Below the pieces are notes generated by a model, which did not search any database, was not told the DNA's origin, and saw nothing but the letters and a program-made list of their open reading frames with translations. Shown here piece after piece: positions 42,531-52,085 of a stretch of 64,000 nt of DNA. Every line of letters begins with the position of its first letter. Position 1 is the first letter of the stretch. A program made the translations under genes and the position numbers. Source of the DNA: an uncultured Lachnospiraceae bacterium (GTDB taxonomy: Bacteria > Bacillota > Clostridia > Lachnospirales > Lachnospiraceae); assembly GCA_947243855.1 (NCBI GenBank), contig CAMXIK010000001.1, forward strand, positions 124,001 to 188,000, given 5' to 3'.

Positions 42531-43205
42531 ATGTCGAAAGAAGAGGTTCTCAGCTATTTTTATACCAACAGCAGCGAATACGGCGTAAAACGCACGCTGG
42601 TGATCCTGCTGTGCGGTCTGGCGGTCGGAATGATTATCTATCTGACCTATTATATTTCTTCGGAAAAGATTGCGTACAACAGGAAGTTTAACTGGTCGTT
42701 AGTGATCATGCACTTGATTACCGTGATTGTCATGATGATGATCAGCAGCAACATTGCGGTATCTCTGGGTATGGTCGGCGCGCTGTCCATTGTCCGTTTC
42801 CGGACGGCGGTGAAGGACAGCCGCGACACGATGTTTATTTTCTGGGCGATGGCGGAAGGGCTTTGCGTGAGTTCCCAGAACTGGCGGTTGACATTTACGT
42901 CCGTGCTGTTTATTGCGGTTGTTCTGATCGCTTCCAGTAAAGTGCCGGGAATCAGAAACCGATATTTGCTGATTGTGAACGGCGCGGGGGAGAGCATCGA
43001 TAGAAAACTGTTTGAAGAGAAATTAAAACCTTATATAGTAAGTTTTCGGGTGCGGACTGCCAATAAGGAAGCTGATCGCGAGGAAATGATCTGTGAGGTC
43101 AGGACAAAGGGGGAACTCGATCTGGATGTGCTCGACGAGCTTTTGTCCGTGCCGGGCATACAGTCTGTCAACTGGGTTGTGGAATCCGGAGAAACGGTAG
43201 GATGA
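42531..43205 (+). CDS. DUF4956 membrane protein
   Basis: 224 residues. Three or four membrane segments between residues 20 and 150 (LVILLCGLAVGMIIYLTYYI; LVIMHLITVIVMMMISS; LTFTSVLFIAVVLIAS) and a conserved SIVRFRTAVKDSRD loop, followed by a soluble C-terminal domain of about 70 residues. GGGAG precedes the ATG. DUF4956 is repeatedly found with VTC-domain proteins, so it probably forms a membrane complex or channel for the polymer or its regulator, but function is unknown. Confidence 0.87.
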   Translation: MSKEEVLSYFYTNSSEYGVKRTLVILLCGLAVGMIIYLTYYISSEKIAYNRKFNWSLVIMHLITVIVMMMISSNIAVSLGMVGALSIVRFRTAVKDSRDTMFIFWAMAEGLCVSSQNWRLTFTSVLFIAVVLIASSKVPGIRNRYLLIVNGAGESIDRKLFEEKLKPYIVSFRVRTANKEADREEMICEVRTKGELDLDVLDELLSVPGIQSVNWVVESGETVG

Positions 43206-45142
43206 TGAGTCGAAAAAGCGCGCTGTTTTGTTTGTTGTTCTTATGCGGGCTTCTGTGCCTGCTTCTTTTGTGTGACAAATATGACCGCACGGGACTGACG
43301 TTTTCCAGAGAGTCGGGGTTTTATGAGGAGCCTTTTGCGCTGGAGATGTCGGCTCCGATCGGGACCAAAATCTTTTATACGCTCGACGGTTCTGTACCGG
43401 ATGAAACGGCGTTTCTGTACACAGATCCCATTGTAATCGACGATGCGACCCTGCATCCGAATGTATATTCCATGCGGACCGATCTGGCATATGAGGCCAC
43501 GATGGAGGGCTTTCCCTATCAACTGCCTGATTATGCGGTAGACAAGTGTACGGTGGTCCGGGCCGTTTATCAGGATAGGGACGGAAAGTATCAGGACCTA
43601 AAAACGGAGAGCTATTTTGTAGGATATGAGGGGAAGCCGGGCTATTCGGGCATGAACGTGATTTCCATTGTGACGGACCCGGATCACTTGTTTGGCTATG
43701 ACGATGGTATTTACGTTTTCGGACGCAGATTTGATACGGAGCTGGATGAGAATGGAAATCATATCGAATTGACGGAAAATTTTAATCAGCATGGATTCCA
43801 ATGGGAGCGTCCTGCGGATATTCAGCTTTTTAACGCGGACAGGGAGGTTGTTTTGAAGCAGTCCTGCGGCATCCGCATTCAGGGAGGCGGCAGCCGGAGC
43901 TGTCTGCCCAAAAGCCTGAACCTTTACGCGAGAGAAGATTACGGCATGGCCAAAAGGTTTTATGCGGATTTATTCGGAACCGGCTATATGGCGGACACCT
44001 TGACCTTGTCTGCGGGCGGGCAGGACACGATCGCTAAGTTCCGGGATCGGTTCGTCTCGACGCTGACAAAAGATAGAGATTTCAGCACCATGAACTATGA
44101 GCCTTATGCGGCGTTTCTGGACGGCGAATACTGGGGCGTTTACTGGCTGACCGAACGCTATACCGACAACTATCTGAGCCATTACTATGGTATTGATAAG
44201 GACGATGCGCTGATCGTCAAAAACGGCAGGCCGGAATCGGACAGCGACGAGGACTGGGCGATTTATAACGGTATGATGAATTACCTAAAGGAGACTGACT
44301 TTTCCGTTTCGGATCAATACGAAGCGCTTGATGATACCATCGATCTGCAAAGCTATCTGGATTACTATGCGACGGAAATTTATATCGGGCGGGGGCTCGA
44401 TTGGCCCGGCGGTACAAACGAGGCGTTCTGGCGGTTGCGGGAACCGTCAAAAAACGCCGAAGGCGGGGCGTTTGGGGACGGCAGATGGCGGTGGATGCTC
44501 TTTGACGTGAATACAAAATCTTTGGACTTCGAGCTTGTGGGGGACGATACGCTTGCTTTTGCGATGGAGCACAGCACGGTGTTTCGCAACCTCTGCCAAA
44601 GCGATGGATTTAAAGAAGATTTCACTCTTACGATGATGGATATCGCCAACGAGGTTTTTTCTCCGGCTCACACGGAACCATTGATGGAGGCGCATCTTGA
44701 CCTGATGGCGGAGCCGGTGGATGCCCATTTGAAACGGTTTTTCGGATCTGACCACCCTTACCGGCTGGAAGAGGAAATGGGAAATATCCGCACCTTCTTG
44801 GAAAACCGGAAAGGGTATATGGGGGAGTTTTTGAAAGAGGATTTCGGGCTGGAAGGCAGCCTTGCCACGGTGGAAATCGGGATTACGGACGCTGCGGCGG
44901 GAAGCGTGGTTTTGAATACCATTACGCCGACCTTTGATGAAGAGGGAACGTGGCGGGGGGAATATTTTACGGATTATCCGGTCACGGTTTCGGCGTCCGT
45001 CAAGGAAGGCTTTCGTTTCGTCGGATGGGAGATAGACGGCGTGCAGGACGATGAAAGGATGGGCGAAGCGTCGGCGGAATTTATGATACCGGAAACGGGA
45101 TTGTATTTGCGGGCGGTTTTTGAGAAGGAGACGGGAGAGTAA
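43202..45142 (+). CDS. Membrane-anchored CotH family kinase
   Basis: 646 residues. An N-terminal membrane anchor (about residues 6-22), a chitobiase-like beta-sandwich with IFYTLDGSVPDE (about 55-70), a CotH kinase domain (about 140-500; SCGIRIQGGGSR, RYTDNYLSHYYGID, WRWMLFDVNTKSLDF), and a C-terminal repeat of about 85 residues like bacterial cell-wall InlB-type domains. CotH in Bacillus phosphorylates spore-coat proteins. The usual second Asp of the metal motif is Asn here (DVN), so activity is uncertain. ATGATG start overlaps the stop of the DUF4956 gene. The kinase domain faces outside the membrane. Confidence 0.88.
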   Translation: MMSRKSALFCLLFLCGLLCLLLLCDKYDRTGLTFSRESGFYEEPFALEMSAPIGTKIFYTLDGSVPDETAFLYTDPIVIDDATLHPNVYSMRTDLAYEATMEGFPYQLPDYAVDKCTVVRAVYQDRDGKYQDLKTESYFVGYEGKPGYSGMNVISIVTDPDHLFGYDDGIYVFGRRFDTELDENGNHIELTENFNQHGFQWERPADIQLFNADREVVLKQSCGIRIQGGGSRSCLPKSLNLYAREDYGMAKRFYADLFGTGYMADTLTLSAGGQDTIAKFRDRFVSTLTKDRDFSTMNYEPYAAFLDGEYWGVYWLTERYTDNYLSHYYGIDKDDALIVKNGRPESDSDEDWAIYNGMMNYLKETDFSVSDQYEALDDTIDLQSYLDYYATEIYIGRGLDWPGGTNEAFWRLREPSKNAEGGAFGDGRWRWMLFDVNTKSLDFELVGDDTLAFAMEHSTVFRNLCQSDGFKEDFTLTMMDIANEVFSPAHTEPLMEAHLDLMAEPVDAHLKRFFGSDHPYRLEEEMGNIRTFLENRKGYMGEFLKEDFGLEGSLATVEIGITDAAAGSVVLNTITPTFDEEGTWRGEYFTDYPVTVSASVKEGFRFVGWEIDGVQDDERMGEASAEFMIPETGLYLRAVFEKETGE

Positions 45143-45180: not shown

Positions 45181-46290
45181 ATGAATCGGGGTAACTACGG
45201 GAGTGCGCTTGTTCTGGCGGCCTTGATTGGAAGTTTGCTTTTTACGGAAACGGTGCTGGCAGCTCCGGCAGAGACAGAGGGGGCTTCCGTATCGGCGGAG
45301 TATGAAGCGTATTATGAGCGTTTGATGGCGATAGAAAATCAGGACGGGATCGCGGACGGCGGCTTTCGTGTGGTGGAAGATCAGATTTTTGCCTTAGAGC
45401 CGGAGGAAGAGGACAGCATTTTGATGGTGCCGGCTTTTGACGAGCAGTATCACCGATTGGCGTTGTTTATCGTGGATGGGGACGGGCGGATTCTTTACCG
45501 GACGGAGCAGCTAGAGACCAATTACTGTGTCAAGGGACGGATGCGGCAGCCGGTGCAGTCCATTGCGGCGGTCTCCTTTCAGGATCTGAACCGGGATGGC
45601 CGGACGGATATCGTTCTCATTACGTTCTGCGTCAACGAGAGCGGCGCCTATGCAGGGGAGACCTACAAGGTTGGGGACGTGCTTTTTCAAAATGCGGCGG
45701 GAAACGGTTTTTACCGGGATTACCGGATCTCGGAAAAAATTAACCGTTTTGGGATGAATAAGAGCGCGGAATCCATTGCGGCTTTTGTAAGGGACGGGGA
45801 TTCCACGGAATTTTTGTATACGGCGTCCACCTTGCGGGAACTGCAAAGAAACGGTTTCCGGATTATTTCAGAGCAGTGTTATCTGCGGACGTTCGGCAAG
45901 CTGGGTAAACTGCAGGTGACGCCGGGGACATACCGGCTTGCGGATTATGATATTTTTATGATTTATCTGGTGAGCGAGCAGGGCGATATTGTTTCGGTCT
46001 TACAGCCGATGGGAGAGTACGACAATCTCTATGCGCTCAAGGGCGTTGCCTGCCGGGATATTGACGGGGATGGGCTAAAAGACATTGTGGTTCTCGCCAG
46101 ATACAGCTATGAGGGCGAGGGCGGGGAGCTGCTGATTGAGAGCGATTACCGGATCTATTATCAGAGAACCGGCGGGTTTGTGCCGGATACGGAGATCAGG
46201 GACGCCTATCGGTGCAGCGACGAGGACACGATGGAAATACTGGTAGAGAAAGCGCGGGCTTATTGGGGGTGGCAGAGCACAAATGACTAA
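45181..46290 (+). CDS. Secreted protein with Asp-rich calcium-type repeats
   Basis: 369 residues. N-terminal signal peptide (about residues 1-27). Two motifs of the kind DLNRDGRTDIV (about residue 140) and DIDGDGLKDIV (about 290) match FG-GAP/VCBS-type calcium loops of beta-propellers. No enzyme motif was recognised. GGAGG is 10 bases upstream. Its stop overlaps the start of the response regulator gene by 8 bases, so it is tied to the two-component system and may be a periplasmic-side sensor partner; that is inferred. Confidence 0.72.
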   Translation: MNRGNYGSALVLAALIGSLLFTETVLAAPAETEGASVSAEYEAYYERLMAIENQDGIADGGFRVVEDQIFALEPEEEDSILMVPAFDEQYHRLALFIVDGDGRILYRTEQLETNYCVKGRMRQPVQSIAAVSFQDLNRDGRTDIVLITFCVNESGAYAGETYKVGDVLFQNAAGNGFYRDYRISEKINRFGMNKSAESIAAFVRDGDSTEFLYTASTLRELQRNGFRIISEQCYLRTFGKLGKLQVTPGTYRLADYDIFMIYLVSEQGDIVSVLQPMGEYDNLYALKGVACRDIDGDGLKDIVVLARYSYEGEGGELLIESDYRIYYQRTGGFVPDTEIRDAYRCSDEDTMEILVEKARAYWGWQSTND

Positions 46291-46942
46291 AATACTGATT
46301 GTAGACGATGAAAAACCGATCTGTGACTTGATAGACTTAAATCTTTCTTCCGCGGGGTATCATTGTACAGCGGTACAGGACGGCCTGCAGGCGATCGACC
46401 TGATCGAGAAGGAAGAGTTTGAACTGGTTCTTTTGGATATCATGCTCCCGGGAGCGGACGGCTATGATGTGATGGAGTACATACGGCCGCTGGGGATTCC
46501 AGTGATCTTTATTACCGCCAAGCATGAGGTAAAGCATCGGGTGAAGGGGTTGAAACTGGGCGCGGACGATTATCTGGTCAAACCCTTCGACGTAGTAGAG
46601 CTGGTGGCGAGAGTGGAGGCGGTGCTCAGGCGTTACAACAAAGCGGAACAGCATCTTACGGCGGGAGACGTGACAGTGGATGTGGACGCGCGCAGGGTGA
46701 CGAAGGCGGGACGTCCGGTGGAACTGACGAACAAAGAATTTGGTCTTCTGCTCCTTTTTATGAAAAATAAGAACGTCGCCCTGTTTCGGGAGACCTTATA
46801 TGAAAAGGTGTGGGAAGGGGAATACTTTGCGGACAGCAGGACGCTTGATCTGCATGTACAGCGTTTACGGAAAAAACTGGGGTGGGAGCATAATCTGGTG
46901 GCCGTGTATAAGGTCGGCTACCGTTTAGAGGTGCAGGAATGA
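46283..46942 (+). CDS. OmpR-family response regulator
   Basis: 219 residues. Receiver with D8, D9, phosphoacceptor D52 (LLDIMLPG), T77 and K100, and a C-terminal winged helix (about 125-215) with the VAVYKVGYRLE end. Starts inside the upstream gene and overlaps the kinase by 4 bases. OmpR-type proteins bind direct repeats as dimers; an array of 11-bp-spaced repeats lies 2.3 kb downstream, ahead of the amidase-deacetylase gene, and is its most likely target. Confidence 0.95.
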   Translation: MTKILIVDDEKPICDLIDLNLSSAGYHCTAVQDGLQAIDLIEKEEFELVLLDIMLPGADGYDVMEYIRPLGIPVIFITAKHEVKHRVKGLKLGADDYLVKPFDVVELVARVEAVLRRYNKAEQHLTAGDVTVDVDARRVTKAGRPVELTNKEFGLLLLFMKNKNVALFRETLYEKVWEGEYFADSRTLDLHVQRLRKKLGWEHNLVAVYKVGYRLEVQE

Positions 46943-48396
46943 AATTTTCGATGAAATTAGTGCTGTCTACCATGATCGTGCTGGCGCTGGCGCTGGGATT
47001 CAGCGGTTTTTATTTTGTAAACTATGTGTTCGAGACTTCTCTGGAAAGAGAGGTGGGACAGGCGCTCGATGAGAGCAGCATCTTAAGCTTTGCTTTTGAG
47101 ACGGCGGCTTTGAATGTGCCTCTCAAGTACAGCGTTTTGCCAGACAGCGTGGTGGAGGAGATCGCGTCCAAACTGGAAATGGGCGGACAGAGCGGCGGGC
47201 GTCTTCTGCGGATTGCCGATGAGGAAAAAAACATACTGTATACCAGCAGCGGATTTACTACGGATGAGGGATTGCTGCCGCAGACGGATCAGCACACCAA
47301 ATCCTACCGCGTGATTCGCGCGCAGGACAGTTTCTATGTGCACACTTGCGTATCCATCAATGCGCTCAACCGGATTTTGTATTTGGAGACCATGAAGGAT
47401 GTGACGGGAGTGTTTACGGAACGCGCCCTTGGGTTTTCCCTGTATCGCAAGGTAACGATTGTTATGCTGCTGACCGGAATGGTTGTCATGCTGTTTATCG
47501 CTTCCTTCCTGACAAAGCCGATTCGTCTGCTGACACAGGCGACCAGAAAAATGGCGGCGGGAGATTACGCCTACCGGGCCAGACAGATCAGCCGGGATGA
47601 GCTGGGGCAGCTTACCGGGGATTTTAACAGGATGGCAAATGCCTTGGAGGAAACGATCTGTAAGCTGGAGGAGGAGATCGAAGCGAGGGAGGAGTTTATG
47701 GGCGCGTTTGCCCATGAATTGAAAACGCCTCTGACGGCGATCATCGGCTATGCGGACATGCTGCGTTCCCACAAAATGGACGAGGAAAAAAGCATCCTGT
47801 CGGCAAATTATATCTATACGGAGGGCAAACGCTTAGAGGCGATGTCCTTCCGGCTTCTGGATATTATCGTGGCAAAACAGGAAGAGGCTAACTTACAGGA
47901 AACCTCTGTGGGAGAACTCTTTGCCTATCTACGGGAAATGTTTGCGGAGAAAAAGGAGCAGGATATCCGCTTCGCCTACGAGGAAGCCGTGGTATGGATG
48001 GAAGAGAACCTGATCAAGACCGTGCTGGTAAACCTGATCGACAATGCCTGTAAGGCTTCGGAGACAGGAGGCGGAGCGGACGGCGCGGGTTCCGATACGG
48101 CGGGTGTGGTCGAGGTCAGCGGCAAGGCGGCCGACGGCGGTTACCGGATCGCGGTAAAAGATTATGGGATCGGCATACCGGAGGCGGAACAAAATAAGAT
48201 TGTCAAGGCGTTTTACATGGTGGATAAGTCAAGGGCAAGAAGCAAGAACGGGGCGGGGCTTGGACTGGCCCTGTGTGCGGAGATTCTAAAGATTCATCAC
48301 AGCGAATTACAGATTGAGAGTAAAGTTGGGGAAGGCTCCTGTTTCAGCTTCCTATTAAGTACCCACGAAAAGAGGGACGGAGAATCGTACATATGA
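46939..48396 (+). CDS. HAMP-containing sensor histidine kinase
   Basis: 485 residues. Membrane segments at about residues 5-27 and 168-190 flank an extracytoplasmic sensor of about 140 residues. HAMP (about 190-245), HisKA with FAHELKTPLTAIIGYADML (phosphoacceptor His about 259), and HATPase_c with NLIDNACKAS, VKDYGIGIPE and GAGLGLALCAEI boxes. Coupled to the response regulator by an ATGA overlap. The sensed signal is unknown, perhaps cell-envelope state given the neighbours. Confidence 0.94.
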   Translation: MKFSMKLVLSTMIVLALALGFSGFYFVNYVFETSLEREVGQALDESSILSFAFETAALNVPLKYSVLPDSVVEEIASKLEMGGQSGGRLLRIADEEKNILYTSSGFTTDEGLLPQTDQHTKSYRVIRAQDSFYVHTCVSINALNRILYLETMKDVTGVFTERALGFSLYRKVTIVMLLTGMVVMLFIASFLTKPIRLLTQATRKMAAGDYAYRARQISRDELGQLTGDFNRMANALEETICKLEEEIEAREEFMGAFAHELKTPLTAIIGYADMLRSHKMDEEKSILSANYIYTEGKRLEAMSFRLLDIIVAKQEEANLQETSVGELFAYLREMFAEKKEQDIRFAYEEAVVWMEENLIKTVLVNLIDNACKASETGGGADGAGSDTAGVVEVSGKAADGGYRIAVKDYGIGIPEAEQNKIVKAFYMVDKSRARSKNGAGLGLALCAEILKIHHSELQIESKVGEGSCFSFLLSTHEKRDGESYI

Positions 48397-49223
48397 AGAA
48401 TCAGGTATATTATCTGGCGGTTCCGCTGTTGGCGGCGCTTGCAATGTTTGTTTCCATATGGGGGCCGGAGGCGCTGGCGGAGTATAAGGATCAGGGGATT
48501 CTGGACAGACCGCATACGGAAAACGTGGAAAATGCCGGGGAGGGCTACCGCTACCAGATGAACAGCAATGAGAAGCTGTATCTTCTGTCATGCTGTTTGA
48601 GCAGCCAGTCCATTCCGGAGAGCGAGACGAGCGCCATGACGCATGAGGAGGACGTGGAGGCTGAGTATCAGGAACTGGAAGGTTCTTATGCCTTTGTGGT
48701 GAACCGCAGGGGGCCGTCCGGCAGGGAGATCACGGACGAGCAGATCTATGTCACATGTAATGAGGGGCTTGCGCTGCTCAAGGAAAAAGGAATCTTGCCA
48801 GAGCAGGTAAAGGAGGTGGAGGCGTCTTCCTACGACGTGACGCTTTACTCAGCGATCGATGTGCTGGAACCGCGCAATAATGTGGCGGTCTGGAAGATGA
48901 GCCTCTCCAATTCCCAGAAAAATGCGGATAAGACAAACCGTCTGATGGATGCCTATCTGGATGCGGACGACGGAAAAATATATGAGTTTTATGTGAGGAC
49001 GCCTCTCTTGTGGGAAGAGATCGACGCGGATGCGCTGGTGGCGGACTGGGCGGCCTATATGGGGCTTGGAGAACCAGAGCCTTATGAGTCGGACAACCCG
49101 CTCTTAGAGACGACGCCGTATTTTCGCAAATATGTTTTCCAAGGCATGGGGAACGGACAGACGGTGGTCACGCTGGGATTTTACGAGGGGATCAACGAAT
49201 TGTTCCTGAAAGTGTCCAGATGA
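48393..49223 (+). CDS. Exported protein of unknown function
   Basis: 276 residues. An N-terminal hydrophobic segment (about 5-30) acts as signal or anchor. The rest is acidic and mixed alpha/beta with no recognised domain; there are similarities in style to regulatory proteins that sit next to HK/RR pairs (YycH/YycI-like placement), but I see no sequence motif to support that. Starts within the kinase stop (ATGA). Its stop codon lies in the first unit of the GATGCAA repeat array. Confidence 0.68.
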   Translation: MKNQVYYLAVPLLAALAMFVSIWGPEALAEYKDQGILDRPHTENVENAGEGYRYQMNSNEKLYLLSCCLSSQSIPESETSAMTHEEDVEAEYQELEGSYAFVVNRRGPSGREITDEQIYVTCNEGLALLKEKGILPEQVKEVEASSYDVTLYSAIDVLEPRNNVAVWKMSLSNSQKNADKTNRLMDAYLDADDGKIYEFYVRTPLLWEEIDADALVADWAAYMGLGEPEPYESDNPLLETTPYFRKYVFQGMGNGQTVVTLGFYEGINELFLKVSR

Positions 49224-49305
49224 TGCAACTTTGATGCAAAAAAGATGGGATTTTGATGCAACTATTATGGCGTTTTGATGCAACTTAGATGAAATTCTGA
49301 TGCAG
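49222..49305 (+). repeat. Array of eight 11-bp-spaced GATGCAA-like repeats (probable response-regulator sites)
   Basis: Heptamers begin at exact 11-bp steps: 49222 GATGCAA, 49233 GATGCAA, 49244 GATGGGA, 49255 GATGCAA, 49266 TATGGCG, 49277 GATGCAA, 49288 GATGAAA, 49299 GATGCAG. The strongest copies from 49233 on are every 22 bp, with weaker ones between, the pattern of tandem half-sites for OmpR-type dimers. The last copy covers the -35 position of the amidase-deacetylase promoter. Confidence 0.85.
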
Positions 49306-49312
49306 CCCGCAG

Positions 49313-49336
49313 GTATGCTTACACTGTAAAGCATAC
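49313..49336. promoter_or_regulatory. Imperfect palindrome over the -10 of the amidase-deacetylase gene
   Basis: GTATGCTT (49313-49320) and AAGCATAC (49329-49336) with inner TTACA/TGTAA arms. TACACT (49320-49325) inside it is a likely -10, 17 bp from the last GATGCA repeat, with no consensus -35. This suits an activator-dependent promoter. Confidence 0.6.
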
Positions 49337-49354
49337 AAGAGAGGAGCATCAGAG

Positions 49355-50833
49355 ATGTACGGAGAGTCGTCGTTTACATGGGAGTATGTCTGTGGTTATG
49401 AGACGAGGGAGCAGAGAAAAAGGCGTCTGTTAAGGAGGACGTACGGACTGAGCGCTACTTTGTGTATCGTCAGTCTGACAGCAATGCTTTCCGTGAAGAT
49501 TGCTTCGGCAGGCGGCGTCCGGTATCTGACGGAAAAATTTTGGAATACGGAGAAGGAGGCAGCGGCGGATCTGCCGTTTACCGGGGAAGGGATAGAGACG
49601 ATACAGGAGGAAACGGCAGTACCCCTCCCTGTAGTGACGGAGCAGATGGCAGTTCCCGCCGGGAATGAGAACGGGCAGCCGGCAGCGGTACAGATTCCAA
49701 CGGTTTATTTAGATCCGGGACATGGCGGTGCGGACGAGGGCTGCGCAAGGGAAGGCGTTCTGGAAAAAGACCTGAATCTTGCCATTGCGCTGTTAGTAAG
49801 GGATAGGCTGGAAGAGCAGGGCTATAAGGTGATCATGTCCAGAGAGACAGATACCTATGTTGCGAAGGAAGCGCGCGTGGAGGAAGCAAACCAGTCGGGG
49901 GCGGATATCTATATCAGCATTCATCAGAACGCTGCGGAGGACGGCGCCGGGGTGAACGGGATGGAGGTGTGGTATACGGAGGACGGCGACCGGAGCGGCA
50001 GTAAGAGACTGGCGCAGTTGATCCGGCAGCAGACGTTAAAGAGCACTGGAGCTGCGGACCGGGAATTGCGGGGCGACGCGGATTTTTATGTGACGGGGAA
50101 CGCTTCTATGCCCGCTTGTCTGATTGAGACTGGATTTCTCTCCAATTCGGCGGAGCGCAGGAAACTGAGTCTTGCGGAATATCAGCAGGAGATCGCGGAC
50201 GGCATCGTGCAGGGCGTTTCCTACTATTTTCATCCAAAGACCATGTACTTAACCTTTGACGACGGCCCTTCCGAGGAAAATACAAGGAAGGTGCTCGCGA
50301 TCCTGCGGGAAAGAAATATTAAGGCTACCTTCTTTCTGATAGGAGAGAATGTGAGACAGCATCCGGAGGTGGCGCGCCAGATCGTGGCGGAAGGACATAC
50401 CATTGGCATTCACTGCGATAACCATGATTATGACGTTTTATATGAGAGTGTGGACAGTTATGTGGCGGATTTTGAAAAGGCAAGACAGACGGTATACGAA
50501 GTGACGGGAGTGGAGACGAATTTGTTCCGTTTTCCGGGCGGAAGCGTCAACGACTTTAATGAGAAAACGGGCGAAGCGATCATCCGTGAGATGACGGAGA
50601 GAGGCTACATTTATTACGACTGGAACGCCAGTCTGGAAGACGCGGTTAAAAATCCAGACCCGAAGCAGCTCATAGAAAACGGCGTAACGACGACGTTGGG
50701 GCGCAAGAAGGTCATCCTGCTCGCCCATGATGTGGTTGGCAGTACGGGGCTTTGTCTGGAGGAGCTTCTGGACAGCCTGCCGGAATATGAAATGAAGCCG
50801 CTCAGCGAGGAGGTAGAGCCGATTCGTTTTTGA
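49355..50833 (+). CDS. Amidase_3 - polysaccharide deacetylase fusion, membrane-anchored
   Basis: 492 residues. Basic cytoplasmic N-terminus, membrane segment (about 30-52), Pro-rich linker, Amidase_3 domain (about 115-292; zinc ligands H123 in DPGHGG, E137, H190 in SIHQNA; catalytic E258 in LIETGF), then a NodB deacetylase domain (about 296-480; TFDDGP 300-305, H353 and H357, RFPGG 392-396, ILLAHD). The two activities would cut the peptide from muramic acid and remove acetyl groups from glycan. GAGAGGAGC precedes the ATG. Preceded by the 11-bp repeat array, so it is probably the main target of the adjacent two-component system. Confidence 0.92.
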   Translation: MYGESSFTWEYVCGYETREQRKRRLLRRTYGLSATLCIVSLTAMLSVKIASAGGVRYLTEKFWNTEKEAAADLPFTGEGIETIQEETAVPLPVVTEQMAVPAGNENGQPAAVQIPTVYLDPGHGGADEGCAREGVLEKDLNLAIALLVRDRLEEQGYKVIMSRETDTYVAKEARVEEANQSGADIYISIHQNAAEDGAGVNGMEVWYTEDGDRSGSKRLAQLIRQQTLKSTGAADRELRGDADFYVTGNASMPACLIETGFLSNSAERRKLSLAEYQQEIADGIVQGVSYYFHPKTMYLTFDDGPSEENTRKVLAILRERNIKATFFLIGENVRQHPEVARQIVAEGHTIGIHCDNHDYDVLYESVDSYVADFEKARQTVYEVTGVETNLFRFPGGSVNDFNEKTGEAIIREMTERGYIYYDWNASLEDAVKNPDPKQLIENGVTTTLGRKKVILLAHDVVGSTGLCLEELLDSLPEYEMKPLSEEVEPIRF

Positions 50834-51107
50834 GCGGGATAAAATTGATGGAAAGCTGTTTTCCCAACCCTTTTGCTAAAAGCTGTAGTGTGGCGACTGT
50901 AGGACTGCAGTTGCCACTTTCGATACGGCTGATGTTTGATTGGCGGATTCCGGAACGTTCTGCAAGTTCCTGCTGTGTCATATTCATGGAAGTTCTTGCT
51001 TCAATAAGCGCTTGGGCCACTTCAAATTCAATTCTTGTCGCCTCGTGCTCTGCACGAAATTCTGGATTTTTTAATTGCTTTTCCAGATATTTGTGAAGAT
51101 CGTTCAT
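50802..51107 (-). CDS. higA: XRE-family antitoxin, HigA-like
   Basis: 101 residues. N-terminal helical extension and an XRE helix-turn-helix (about residues 38-90; MTQQELAERSGIRQSNISRIESG). It begins 4 bases before the end of the toxin gene and is translated second, the HigBA order. It ends inside the 3' end of the convergent deacetylase gene (32-base overlap). Confidence 0.85.
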   Translation of the reverse strand: MNDLHKYLEKQLKNPEFRAEHEATRIEFEVAQALIEARTSMNMTQQELAERSGIRQSNISRIESGNCSPTVATLQLLAKGLGKQLSINFIPLKNESALPPR

Positions 51108-51466
51108 ATTCGTGAATTCCTTTCTTGGGCCTTTTGTTCGTAGTCGGCTTTATATTTTTTGGCTAATTCTAGTTGGCTGCGCGGTGTCTTTTGGGTTTTT
51201 TTGATAAAACCATTGGTTAGTATAATTTTATTATTTATGTAGAAGAAGTAGAAAATTCGTGAAATATCTGAGGAAAATTTGATTCTAAGTTCAAATAGTC
51301 CTCCGCCGACATGCTTTGAATAGGGTTCACGTAAGTTGTTCCCGAATTTTTCTAAAATGAGTAAGCTGTCCAATGCCTTATTTCGCATTTTAACATTCAG
51401 GGTATCCAGAAATTCTTCGACAGGAGATGTTCCGTCGGATAATCGATAAAATTCAATGTCAAACAT
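51104..51466 (-). CDS. higB: RelE/HigB-like toxin (Gp49 type)
   Basis: 120 residues. Short mRNA-interferase-type protein with FDIEFYRLSDGTSPVEEFLDTL at the N-terminus and GLFELRIKFSSDISRIFYFF core, typical of the phage-derived Gp49/HigB group. C-terminal LAKKYKADYE helix. AAAGAAAGGAA precedes the ATG. It forms a pair with the downstream XRE protein. Confidence 0.87.
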   Translation of the reverse strand: MFDIEFYRLSDGTSPVEEFLDTLNVKMRNKALDSLLILEKFGNNLREPYSKHVGGGLFELRIKFSSDISRIFYFFYINNKIILTNGFIKKTQKTPRSQLELAKKYKADYEQKAQERNSRI

Positions 51467-51774: not shown

Positions 51775-52085
51775 AGTTATCATAGGCACAGACGTTGAGG
51801 AAGACAGTACCCGATTTTTGAAAGCTGCAGCGAGCCGGGGATGGTGCAAGCCCGGTACGAGTAGGGGATCGGAGAAGATCACTTCTGAGTTTCAGACCGA
51901 ACTTTCAAAGCCTTTGCCGGAAACCGTTTTGGAACCGGAGAGTGCAGGATGAAACAGTAGGCTCTGACGGCGTTCCGCCGTTATCGGAAAGCGTATAGCC
52001 ATTTGCGGATGGCGGTGCGTCGTAACAGGTGGTATCACGAGAACTTTGCCCTCGTCCTTTTACGGGACGGGGGCTTTGCTTTTTC
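51775..52085 (+). ncRNA. T-box riboswitch leader of ileS
   Basis: A leader of about 310 nt. Stem I includes the distal-loop block AGCGAGCCGGGGATGGTG and a likely specifier ATC (isoleucine, 51878-51880) within AGAAGATCACTTCT. The T-box sequence AACAGGTGGTATCACGAG lies at 52024-52041; its TGGT pairs with the ACCA end of uncharged tRNA-Ile. The terminator follows at 52048-52085. Uncharged tRNA-Ile would stabilise the antiterminator and allow ileS transcription. Confidence 0.88.
52048..52085 (+). terminator. T-box leader terminator
   Basis: GCCCTCGTCC pairs with GGACGGGGGC (10 bp, one G-U) around a 7-nt loop, then TTTGCTTTTTC. The conditional terminator of the ileS leader. Confidence 0.88.

What the first reader, a model, noticed from the sequence alone, without database searches (positions are those of the whole stretch)
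49222..49325. Eight 11-bp-spaced repeats ahead of the amidase-deacetylase gene
Perfect 11-bp spacing with alternate strong and weak copies is the signature of OmpR-type dimers in tandem. The last copy replaces the -35 hexamer. The adjacent OmpR-type regulator is the natural candidate. Arrays of this length are uncommon and suggest graded, cooperative control.
Basis: partly seen in the sequence, partly recalled or inferred. Interest (0 to 1): 0.72.

Follow-up and report, generated by a model that had tools for sequence, protein, structure and literature searches.

The report
Repeat-array promoter guarding a wall-cutting enzyme
Eight evenly spaced copies of a short DNA word in front of a cell-wall-cutting enzyme gene look like a real, conserved switch for the neighbouring sensor system, and the last copy also seems to form half of an RNA hairpin that keeps the enzyme silent when it is copied from elsewhere.

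Summary
The array is real: eight GATGCAA-like 7-mers at an exact 11-bp step (49222-49305). Of 116 orthologue loci from Lachnospiraceae relatives, 109 carry it by my detector (77 distinct); copy number is mostly six, and even in 72 of 76. The motif recurs before other envelope-type genes (lipoteichoic acid synthase-like, VIT/VWA, lipoprotein-like). In 64 chosen arrays a TATAAT-like -10 sits at one fixed distance, 15 bp from the start of the last copy; so the window's -10 is TATGCT 49314-49319 and the array covers the -35 slot. The motif tracks the adjacent OmpR/PhoB-type regulator: 205 sites in 65 genomes with it, 4 in 12 without.

RNA from this promoter should lack the left arm; RNA reading in from upstream has it. 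The hairpin is strong at the amidase promoter (median z -3.9, 76 leaders), not at 59 sister promoters (-0.1). I infer insulation against read-through, as in phage T4 lysozyme. Compensatory support is inconclusive.

The parts
46283..46942 (+). OmpR/PhoB-type response regulator (receiver + winged helix), proposed to bind the array
   Evidence: Pfam Response_reg and Trans_reg_C; best solved chains MtrA and RegX3; co-occurrence with motif
46939..48396 (+). HAMP/HisKA/HATPase sensor histidine kinase
   Evidence: Pfam; adjoining the regulator
48393..49223 (+). Orphan ORF X, last gene before the array; its stop overlaps the first repeat
   Evidence: No Pfam hit at E 0.001; weak PepSY in 19 of 26 orthologues at E up to 1, but not in the window's own copy
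49222..49305 (+). Operator array: eight GATGCAA-like 7-mers, 11-bp step (4 presumed dimer sites)
   Evidence: conserved in relatives
49291..49296 (+). -35 slot (17-bp spacer assumed), covered by copies 7/8
   Evidence: Geometry; no promoter listed at the array
49314..49319 (+). -10 element TATGCT, 15 bp from the start of the last copy
   Evidence: Fixed offset in 64 regulon arrays; composite score 37.3 against at most 15.7 in 20 shuffles (the matrix was built from 135 sites that include this one)
49326..49327 (+). Predicted transcription start (about 7 nt past the -10), in the hairpin loop
   Evidence: Inference from the -10 position; not mapped
49296..49320 (+). Left arm of hairpin = last repeat + spacer + -10 (present only in read-through RNA if the start is as predicted)
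49329..49353 (+). Right arm of hairpin, holds the Shine-Dalgarno AGGAG 49342-49346
   Evidence: RNA 49326-49380 has no such fold
49355..50833 (+). Amidase_3 (CwlD-like) fused to polysaccharide deacetylase (PdaB-like): presumed target gene
   Evidence: Pfam and NCBIfam, the latter below the equivalog cut-offs

Best explanation
The array is the activator platform of the amidase-deacetylase promoter. The response regulator at 46283-46942, when activated by its kinase, binds head-to-tail as dimers, one per 22 bp, and the dimer next to the promoter covers the missing -35 and recruits RNA polymerase to the -10 at 49314-49319. The same regulator drives a regulon of envelope genes with the same geometry. 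At this promoter the last repeat and the -10 double as the left arm of an RNA hairpin. RNA that starts here begins in the loop, lacks the left arm and exposes the Shine-Dalgarno. RNA that reads in from the regulator operon carries both arms and hides it; in related species the hairpin is an intrinsic terminator instead. The wall hydrolase would thus be made only when the regulator fires this promoter. Shown by comparison: array, even copy number, fixed -10, co-occurrence, and a predicted hairpin that is special to this promoter. Inferred: binding, activation, start site, silencing of read-through RNA.
For: Array in 109 of 116 orthologue loci; copy number even in 72 of 76. -10 at offset 15: 37 of 64 arrays have at least 5 of 6 matches, against at most 7 of 64 at any other offset 5-59. 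Regulator and motif: 62 of 65 genomes with the regulator have the exact pair, 4 of 12 without it; 205 against 4 sites; reversed-pattern control 5 sites in 77 genomes. Outside the genus 5 of 6 genomes with a regulator at least 78% identical keep regulator-kinase-X-array-amidase; in the sixth (G153) array and amidase are both absent from the 2.5 kb after X. Where 3.7-4.8 kb of other DNA lies between X and the amidase (8 named loci), the array stays with the amidase. Hairpin: median z -3.9 in 76 leaders (49 of 76 at -3 or below) against -0.1 at 59 other regulon promoters (3 of 59), Mann-Whitney p 3e-15; window RNA 49295-49380 -28.8 kcal/mol, z -3.6, RNA 49326-49380 -5.6, z +0.5; Shine-Dalgarno pairing 0.83 in read-through and 0.34 in promoter RNA (medians of 46 leaders without a T-run).
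Against: No binding, transcription or start-site data. In the window's own leader the predicted Shine-Dalgarno pairing differs less (0.62 against 0.39). RNAalifold found no consensus structure on 32 leaders; on 10 close leaders only 2 of 17 pairs show double changes; the number of pairs with double changes (7) is no more than shuffled (6.7), though the covariation score is higher (0.194 against 0.157, 0 of 500). By one automatic rule 10 of 76 leaders have neither block, and 27 of 76 do not reach z -3. Odd copy counts are 13 of 59 in other regulon promoters. Three of 65 genomes with the regulator lack the exact pair and 4 of 12 without it have one. Orthologues are related, so counts are not independent events. 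The window holds no further site, so none before the regulator operon.
Confidence: 0.72

Rival explanations
1. The array is an activator operator as described, but the hairpin is an ordinary leader or terminator stem of the upstream operon with no role in telling transcripts apart; the overlap with the -10 comes from limited space.
For: In about 25 of 76 leaders the stem looks like a standard intrinsic terminator with a T-run (my count after setting aside six Shine-Dalgarno-type leaders); RNAalifold is negative on the wide alignment.
Against: In 44 of 76 leaders, the window's among them, the right arm overlaps the Shine-Dalgarno by at least 3 bases; 59 sister promoters as a set lack such hairpins; the hairpin is also there in the clade with a different upstream gene.
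Confidence: 0.25
2. Another regulator of the same DNA-binding class, not the adjacent one, binds the array; the neighbourhood is incidental.
For: The genome has many regulator-like places (83 candidates in the first look); 4 of 12 genomes without this regulator have one site.
Against: Co-occurrence within the genus and syntenic linkage in 5 of 6 genomes of other genera; the exact motif is in 2 of those 6, in 0 of 8 genomes with only a 58-63% identical homologue and in 0 of 16 genomes without a match at E 1e-85.
Confidence: 0.1
3. The array represses (or autoregulates) rather than activates.
For: OmpR-type regulators can repress (recalled); some arrays run close to the start codon (for example C3:35161).
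Against: No promoter with a -35 listed at the array and the fixed distance to the -10 fit activation in place of the -35.
Confidence: 0.1

Closest known systems
OmpR/PhoB-family tandem operators (Mtb PhoP, PMC4832192, passages seen; E. coli PhoB pho box, recalled)
   Same: Direct repeats of 7 bp with a 4-bp spacer; tandem dimer; higher affinity with 3 and 4 motifs reported for Mtb PhoP; box in place of -35 (PhoB, recalled)
   Different: Different word (GATGCAA), arrays of mostly 4-8 copies with an even bias, envelope-type regulon in Lachnospiraceae
C. difficile RR_1586 (PMC6222199, passages seen)
   Same: OmpR-family regulator of a clostridial anaerobe with an 11-bp direct repeat site
   Different: Consensus DRTTAAGNWWW twice; sporulation and germination targets; no long arrays in the passages seen
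Phage T4 gene e (lysozyme), soc, I-TevI (PMC3014915 and PMC2988022, passages seen)
   Same: Long upstream transcripts hide the ribosome site in a hairpin; a promoter within the left arm makes RNA without it; gene e is also a wall hydrolase
   Different: Phage late promoters, not a two-component operator; here a terminator version seems to replace the translational one in some species
IS10 transposase protection from read-through (recalled, not read)
   Same: Read-through RNA folds to hide the ribosome site
   Different: Mobile element, no regulator array

Membership tests
OmpR/PhoB-type response-regulator operator | Direct (head-to-tail) repeats of about 7 bp at 10-11 bp step | tested here: met
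OmpR/PhoB-type response-regulator operator | Dimer units, even number of half-sites | tested here: met
   72 of 76 amidase leaders, 46 of 59 other promoters
OmpR/PhoB-type response-regulator operator | Fixed placement relative to the -10 | tested here: met
   Offset 15 in 64 arrays
OmpR/PhoB-type response-regulator operator | Cognate regulator of this family co-occurs with the site | tested here: met
   exceptions on both sides
OmpR/PhoB-type response-regulator operator | Binding by the (phosphorylated) regulator | not testable with these tools
   Needs footprint or shift assay
T4 gene e-type read-through block | Ribosome site paired in long RNA, free in short RNA | tested here: met
   Predicted folds only: 46 leaders without a T-run, medians 0.83 and 0.34; window 0.62 and 0.39
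T4 gene e-type read-through block | Promoter inside the sequence coding the left arm | tested here: met
   -10 at offset 15-20, pairs up to offset 23; start site not mapped
T4 gene e-type read-through block | Long RNA is poorly translated | not testable with these tools
   Needs reporter assay
T4 gene e-type read-through block | Structure supported by compensatory changes | tested here: inconclusive
   Score above shuffles and 2 double-changed pairs, but no excess of double-changed pairs and RNAalifold negative
Known Rfam leader family | Match to a curated RNA family at 49180-49420 | tested here: not met
   none at E up to 1

The most novel reading that the evidence does not exclude
A chromosomal two-component regulon has a dual-use operator: the promoter-proximal response-regulator repeat and the -10 are also the left strand of an RNA hairpin, so the same bases tell the cell where a transcript began. 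The block on foreign transcripts has switched between translational (Shine-Dalgarno hidden) and transcriptional (terminator) forms during the evolution of one bacterial group, keeping a wall hydrolase strictly under its regulator.
Probability: 0.5. Interest if true: 0.68.

Novelty: new variant of a known kind. Interest (0 to 1): 0.56.

Why it matters
It gives a binding word, a promoter geometry and a list of candidate targets for what looks like an undescribed envelope two-component system in Lachnospiraceae. If the hairpin reading holds, it would also show a bacterial chromosome using the T4-lysozyme trick to keep a wall-cutting enzyme from being made off the wrong transcript, with a natural series of translational and terminator versions to compare.

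Tried and rejected
Consensus scan for a sigma-70 -35/-10 pair at the array: none listed. Rfam on the leader: none. RNAalifold on 32 leaders: no structure. The exact motif in genomes with only distant regulator homologues (58-63% identical): 0 of 8; short look-alikes seen by eye there were not pursued. A further site in the window, such as one before the regulator operon: none above the shuffles. Structure prediction of protein X: machine busy three times, given up. Literature: I saw no paper with this motif as a regulator site in the listings (20, 15 and 10 rows shown of 71, 424 and 85), and no chromosomal two-component case of this read-through design in the listings; neighbouring subjects seen there only as listings (ISPpu9 transposase leader, PMC8450116; a Helicobacter toxin mRNA, PMC6733600) were not read. 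Only open-licence PMC papers are covered.

Rows dropped: began with 116 loci (30, 14 of the 17 stretches, 72 of the 79 loci; many are the same genome under two names). Seven lacked an array of at least 3 copies by the detector (L031 and L219 are contig ends; L064, L255, L259, L260 and L265 had 2 detected copies); 109 remained, 77 were distinct, and 1 (L264) fell to the -10 filter, leaving 76. The regulon set is 64 arrays in 61 stretches (L003 and 60 that I picked from the listed matches, itself a cut list); the -10 offset test used all 64, the parity and hairpin tests the 59 with at least 4 of 6 -10 matches, a selected set.

Full report
OBSERVATION. The window holds eight 7-bp copies of GATGCAA or close variants at 49222, 49233, 49244, 49255, 49266, 49277, 49288 and 49299, each 11 bp from the next. 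Copies 1, 2, 4, 6 and 8 are full or near-full; 3, 5 and 7 are weaker. The spaced pattern GATG-N7-GATG-N7-GATG with one mismatch allowed matches 6 times in the window, all here, against 0.63 expected and none of 100 shuffles reaching 6. In the whole 3.58-Mb genome GATGCAAN4GATGCAA occurs twice, its reversed control not at all.

SETTING. Upstream on the same strand lie a CotH-domain protein (43202-45142), an FG-GAP protein (45181-46290), an OmpR/PhoB-type response regulator (46283-46942), a histidine kinase (46939-48396) and an orphan ORF X (48393-49223), whose stop overlaps the first repeat. Downstream is a 492-aa fusion of a CwlD-like amidase and a PdaB-like deacetylase (49355-50833). The terminator scan lists no + strand site between 48580 and 50065.

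CONSERVATION. The genome's genus is unnamed in the tools. Named relatives found with the amidase are mostly Lachnospiraceae, among them Bacterium 1xD42-87 (83% identical) and, more distantly, Acetatifactor muris (52%). One search covered 116 genomes with the amidase. From its matches and those I examined 116 loci (30, 14 stretches, 72). Of these, 109 carry the array by my detector, 77 with distinct sequence. Counting by a position matrix from the promoter end, copy number is even in 72 of 76 leaders (52 with six, 11 with eight, 8 with four, 1 with two) and odd in 4; motif scores occur almost only in the 11-bp phase. Length changes between relatives are thus mostly steps of 22 bp, one presumed dimer site. 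In the clade of L020-L026, with another upstream gene, 3.7-4.8 kb lie between X and the amidase (8 named loci) and the array stays with the amidase.

REGULON AND PROMOTER GEOMETRY. The exact pair occurs in 66 of 77 genus genomes; the reversed control has 5 sites in all. I fetched a chosen set of other sites and, with L003, found 64 arrays in 61 stretches. A TATAAT-like hexamer stands exactly 15 bp after the start of the last copy: mean match 4.48 of 6, with at least 5 of 6 in 37 of 64; no other offset from 5 to 59 exceeds 7 of 64. This sets the window's -10 at TATGCT 49314-49319 and the -35 slot at 49291-49296, between copies 7 and 8. By BLAST clusters, downstream genes include LtaS-like sulfatases (9 of 64) and VIT/VWA proteins with 8-9 scored copies (7 of 64). 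Of 27 proteins scanned with Pfam, 14 have no family; the others include sulfatase, VIT/VWA, RHS, WG-repeat, LRR, lectin, LysM, MBOAT, FHA, deacetylase and a sigma factor; the MBOAT and sigma-factor arrays have poor -10s. By a crude test 54 of 64 first genes have an N-terminal hydrophobic stretch or lipobox; the control, 18 of 56 long ORFs of the window, includes false ORFs. In the window's own genome I see three likely sites: the amidase, an LtaS-like protein (C6:22973; solved chains matched are lipoteichoic acid synthases) and an FHA-domain protein (C3:35161, one mismatch, composite score 20.4). At two mismatches 22 places match against 6 for the control, most of the others inside ORFs.

WHICH REGULATOR. 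Taking a regulator at least 75% identical as orthologue, 62 of 65 genomes with it have the exact pair and 4 of 12 without it (Fisher p 3e-6); 205 sites against 4. Of 250 family genomes, 6 from other genera have a regulator 78-89% identical. Five of these keep regulator, kinase, X, an array (some degenerate) and the amidase in order; in G153 both array and amidase are missing from the 2.5 kb after X. The exact pair was found in 2 of these 6, 0 of 8 genomes with a 58-63% homologue and 0 of 16 without a match at E 1e-85. These are comparisons, not binding data, and the genomes share ancestry.

THE HAIRPIN. The inverted repeat 49296-49320 / 49329-49353 joins the last repeat, spacer and -10 to the Shine-Dalgarno region. 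RNA 49295-49380 folds at -28.8 kcal/mol (z -3.6, 0 of 200 shuffles as good); RNA from the predicted start, 49326-49380, at -5.6 (z +0.5). The arm-to-downstream duplex has median z -3.9 in 76 amidase leaders (49 at -3 or below) and -0.1 at 59 other regulon promoters (3 at -3 or below, two of them LtaS-like, L003 and L179), so it is not a by-product of the operator. In 46 leaders without a T-run the Shine-Dalgarno is paired with median probability 0.83 in read-through RNA and 0.34 in promoter RNA; in 31 with a T-run 0.45 and 0.49; in the window's own leader 0.62 and 0.39, a smaller contrast. By the duplex rule, 44 of 76 leaders have the right arm on the Shine-Dalgarno, 6 are called terminator and 26 neither. 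By the rule, 31 have a hairpin followed by T, of which I set aside six (L012, L022, L026, L069, L202, L204) by eye as Shine-Dalgarno type (all six are so called), leaving 25 terminator-like; 35 are occlusion only and 10 neither.

TESTS THAT WERE WEAK OR NEGATIVE. On a 32-leader alignment RNAalifold gave no structure. With a named 22-pair stem taken from L010, 76.1% of cells pair against 36-48% when slid (a template advantage is expected), and the covariation score is 0.194 against 0.157 shuffled (0 of 500), but the count of pairs with double changes is 7 against 6.7, no excess. On 10 close leaders 17 pairs are predicted, 2 with double changes, both in the -10 region. Compensatory support is therefore inconclusive; the stronger argument is the contrast with sister promoters.

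MECHANISM AND COMPARISON. The 7+4-bp tandem sites match Mycobacterium tuberculosis PhoP, which bound sequences with 3 and 4 motifs more tightly (PMC4832192, passages). C. difficile RR_1586 has another word at the same period (PMC6222199, passages). The hairpin works, on paper, like T4 gene e and I-TevI, where long transcripts hide the ribosome site and a promoter inside the left arm makes free RNA (PMC3014915 and PMC2988022, passages). Gene e is likewise a wall hydrolase. The T4 designs are translational; the terminator-like form in 25 of 76 leaders is a variation that I did not see in the listings named under Tried and rejected.

VERDICT. The array is a conserved operator of a known kind, with a word and regulon new to me and to the listings searched; its coupling to a transcript-origin hairpin is a new variant of known kinds and awaits experiment.

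Noticed in passing
window 50802-51466, minus strand: HTH protein and Gp49-family protein side by side just after the amidase gene: a likely toxin-antitoxin pair (families; the pairing is recalled knowledge).
   Followed up: no
window 51786-52062: T-box leader ahead of a large ORF at 52029 that looks like an aminoacyl-tRNA ligase (recalled, not searched); Rfam RF00230 at E 1.5e-16 but 75 bits against a gathering score of 93, so missed at the gathering threshold.
   Followed up: partly
L300, L301, L302, L304, L305, L306: Downstream of distant regulator homologues (58-63% identical) short GATGCAA/GACGCAA-like stretches seem to sit 15 bp before a -10-like hexamer; judged by eye only.
   Followed up: no
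L003 4930-5010 and L179: The LtaS-like promoter also shows a significant arm-to-downstream duplex (z -4.6 and -5.1); in L003 it lies just behind a co-directional ORF, so a read-through block may exist there too.
   Followed up: no
window 48393-49223: Protein X has no Pfam family at E 0.001, but 19 of 26 orthologues give weak PepSY matches at E up to 1; it was found in 68 of 72 named loci.
   Followed up: partly
G071, G006, G055, G067: These relatives have 13, 12, 8 and 8 exact motif pairs per genome against 2 in the window's genome, so the regulon may have grown in some lineages.
   Followed up: partly
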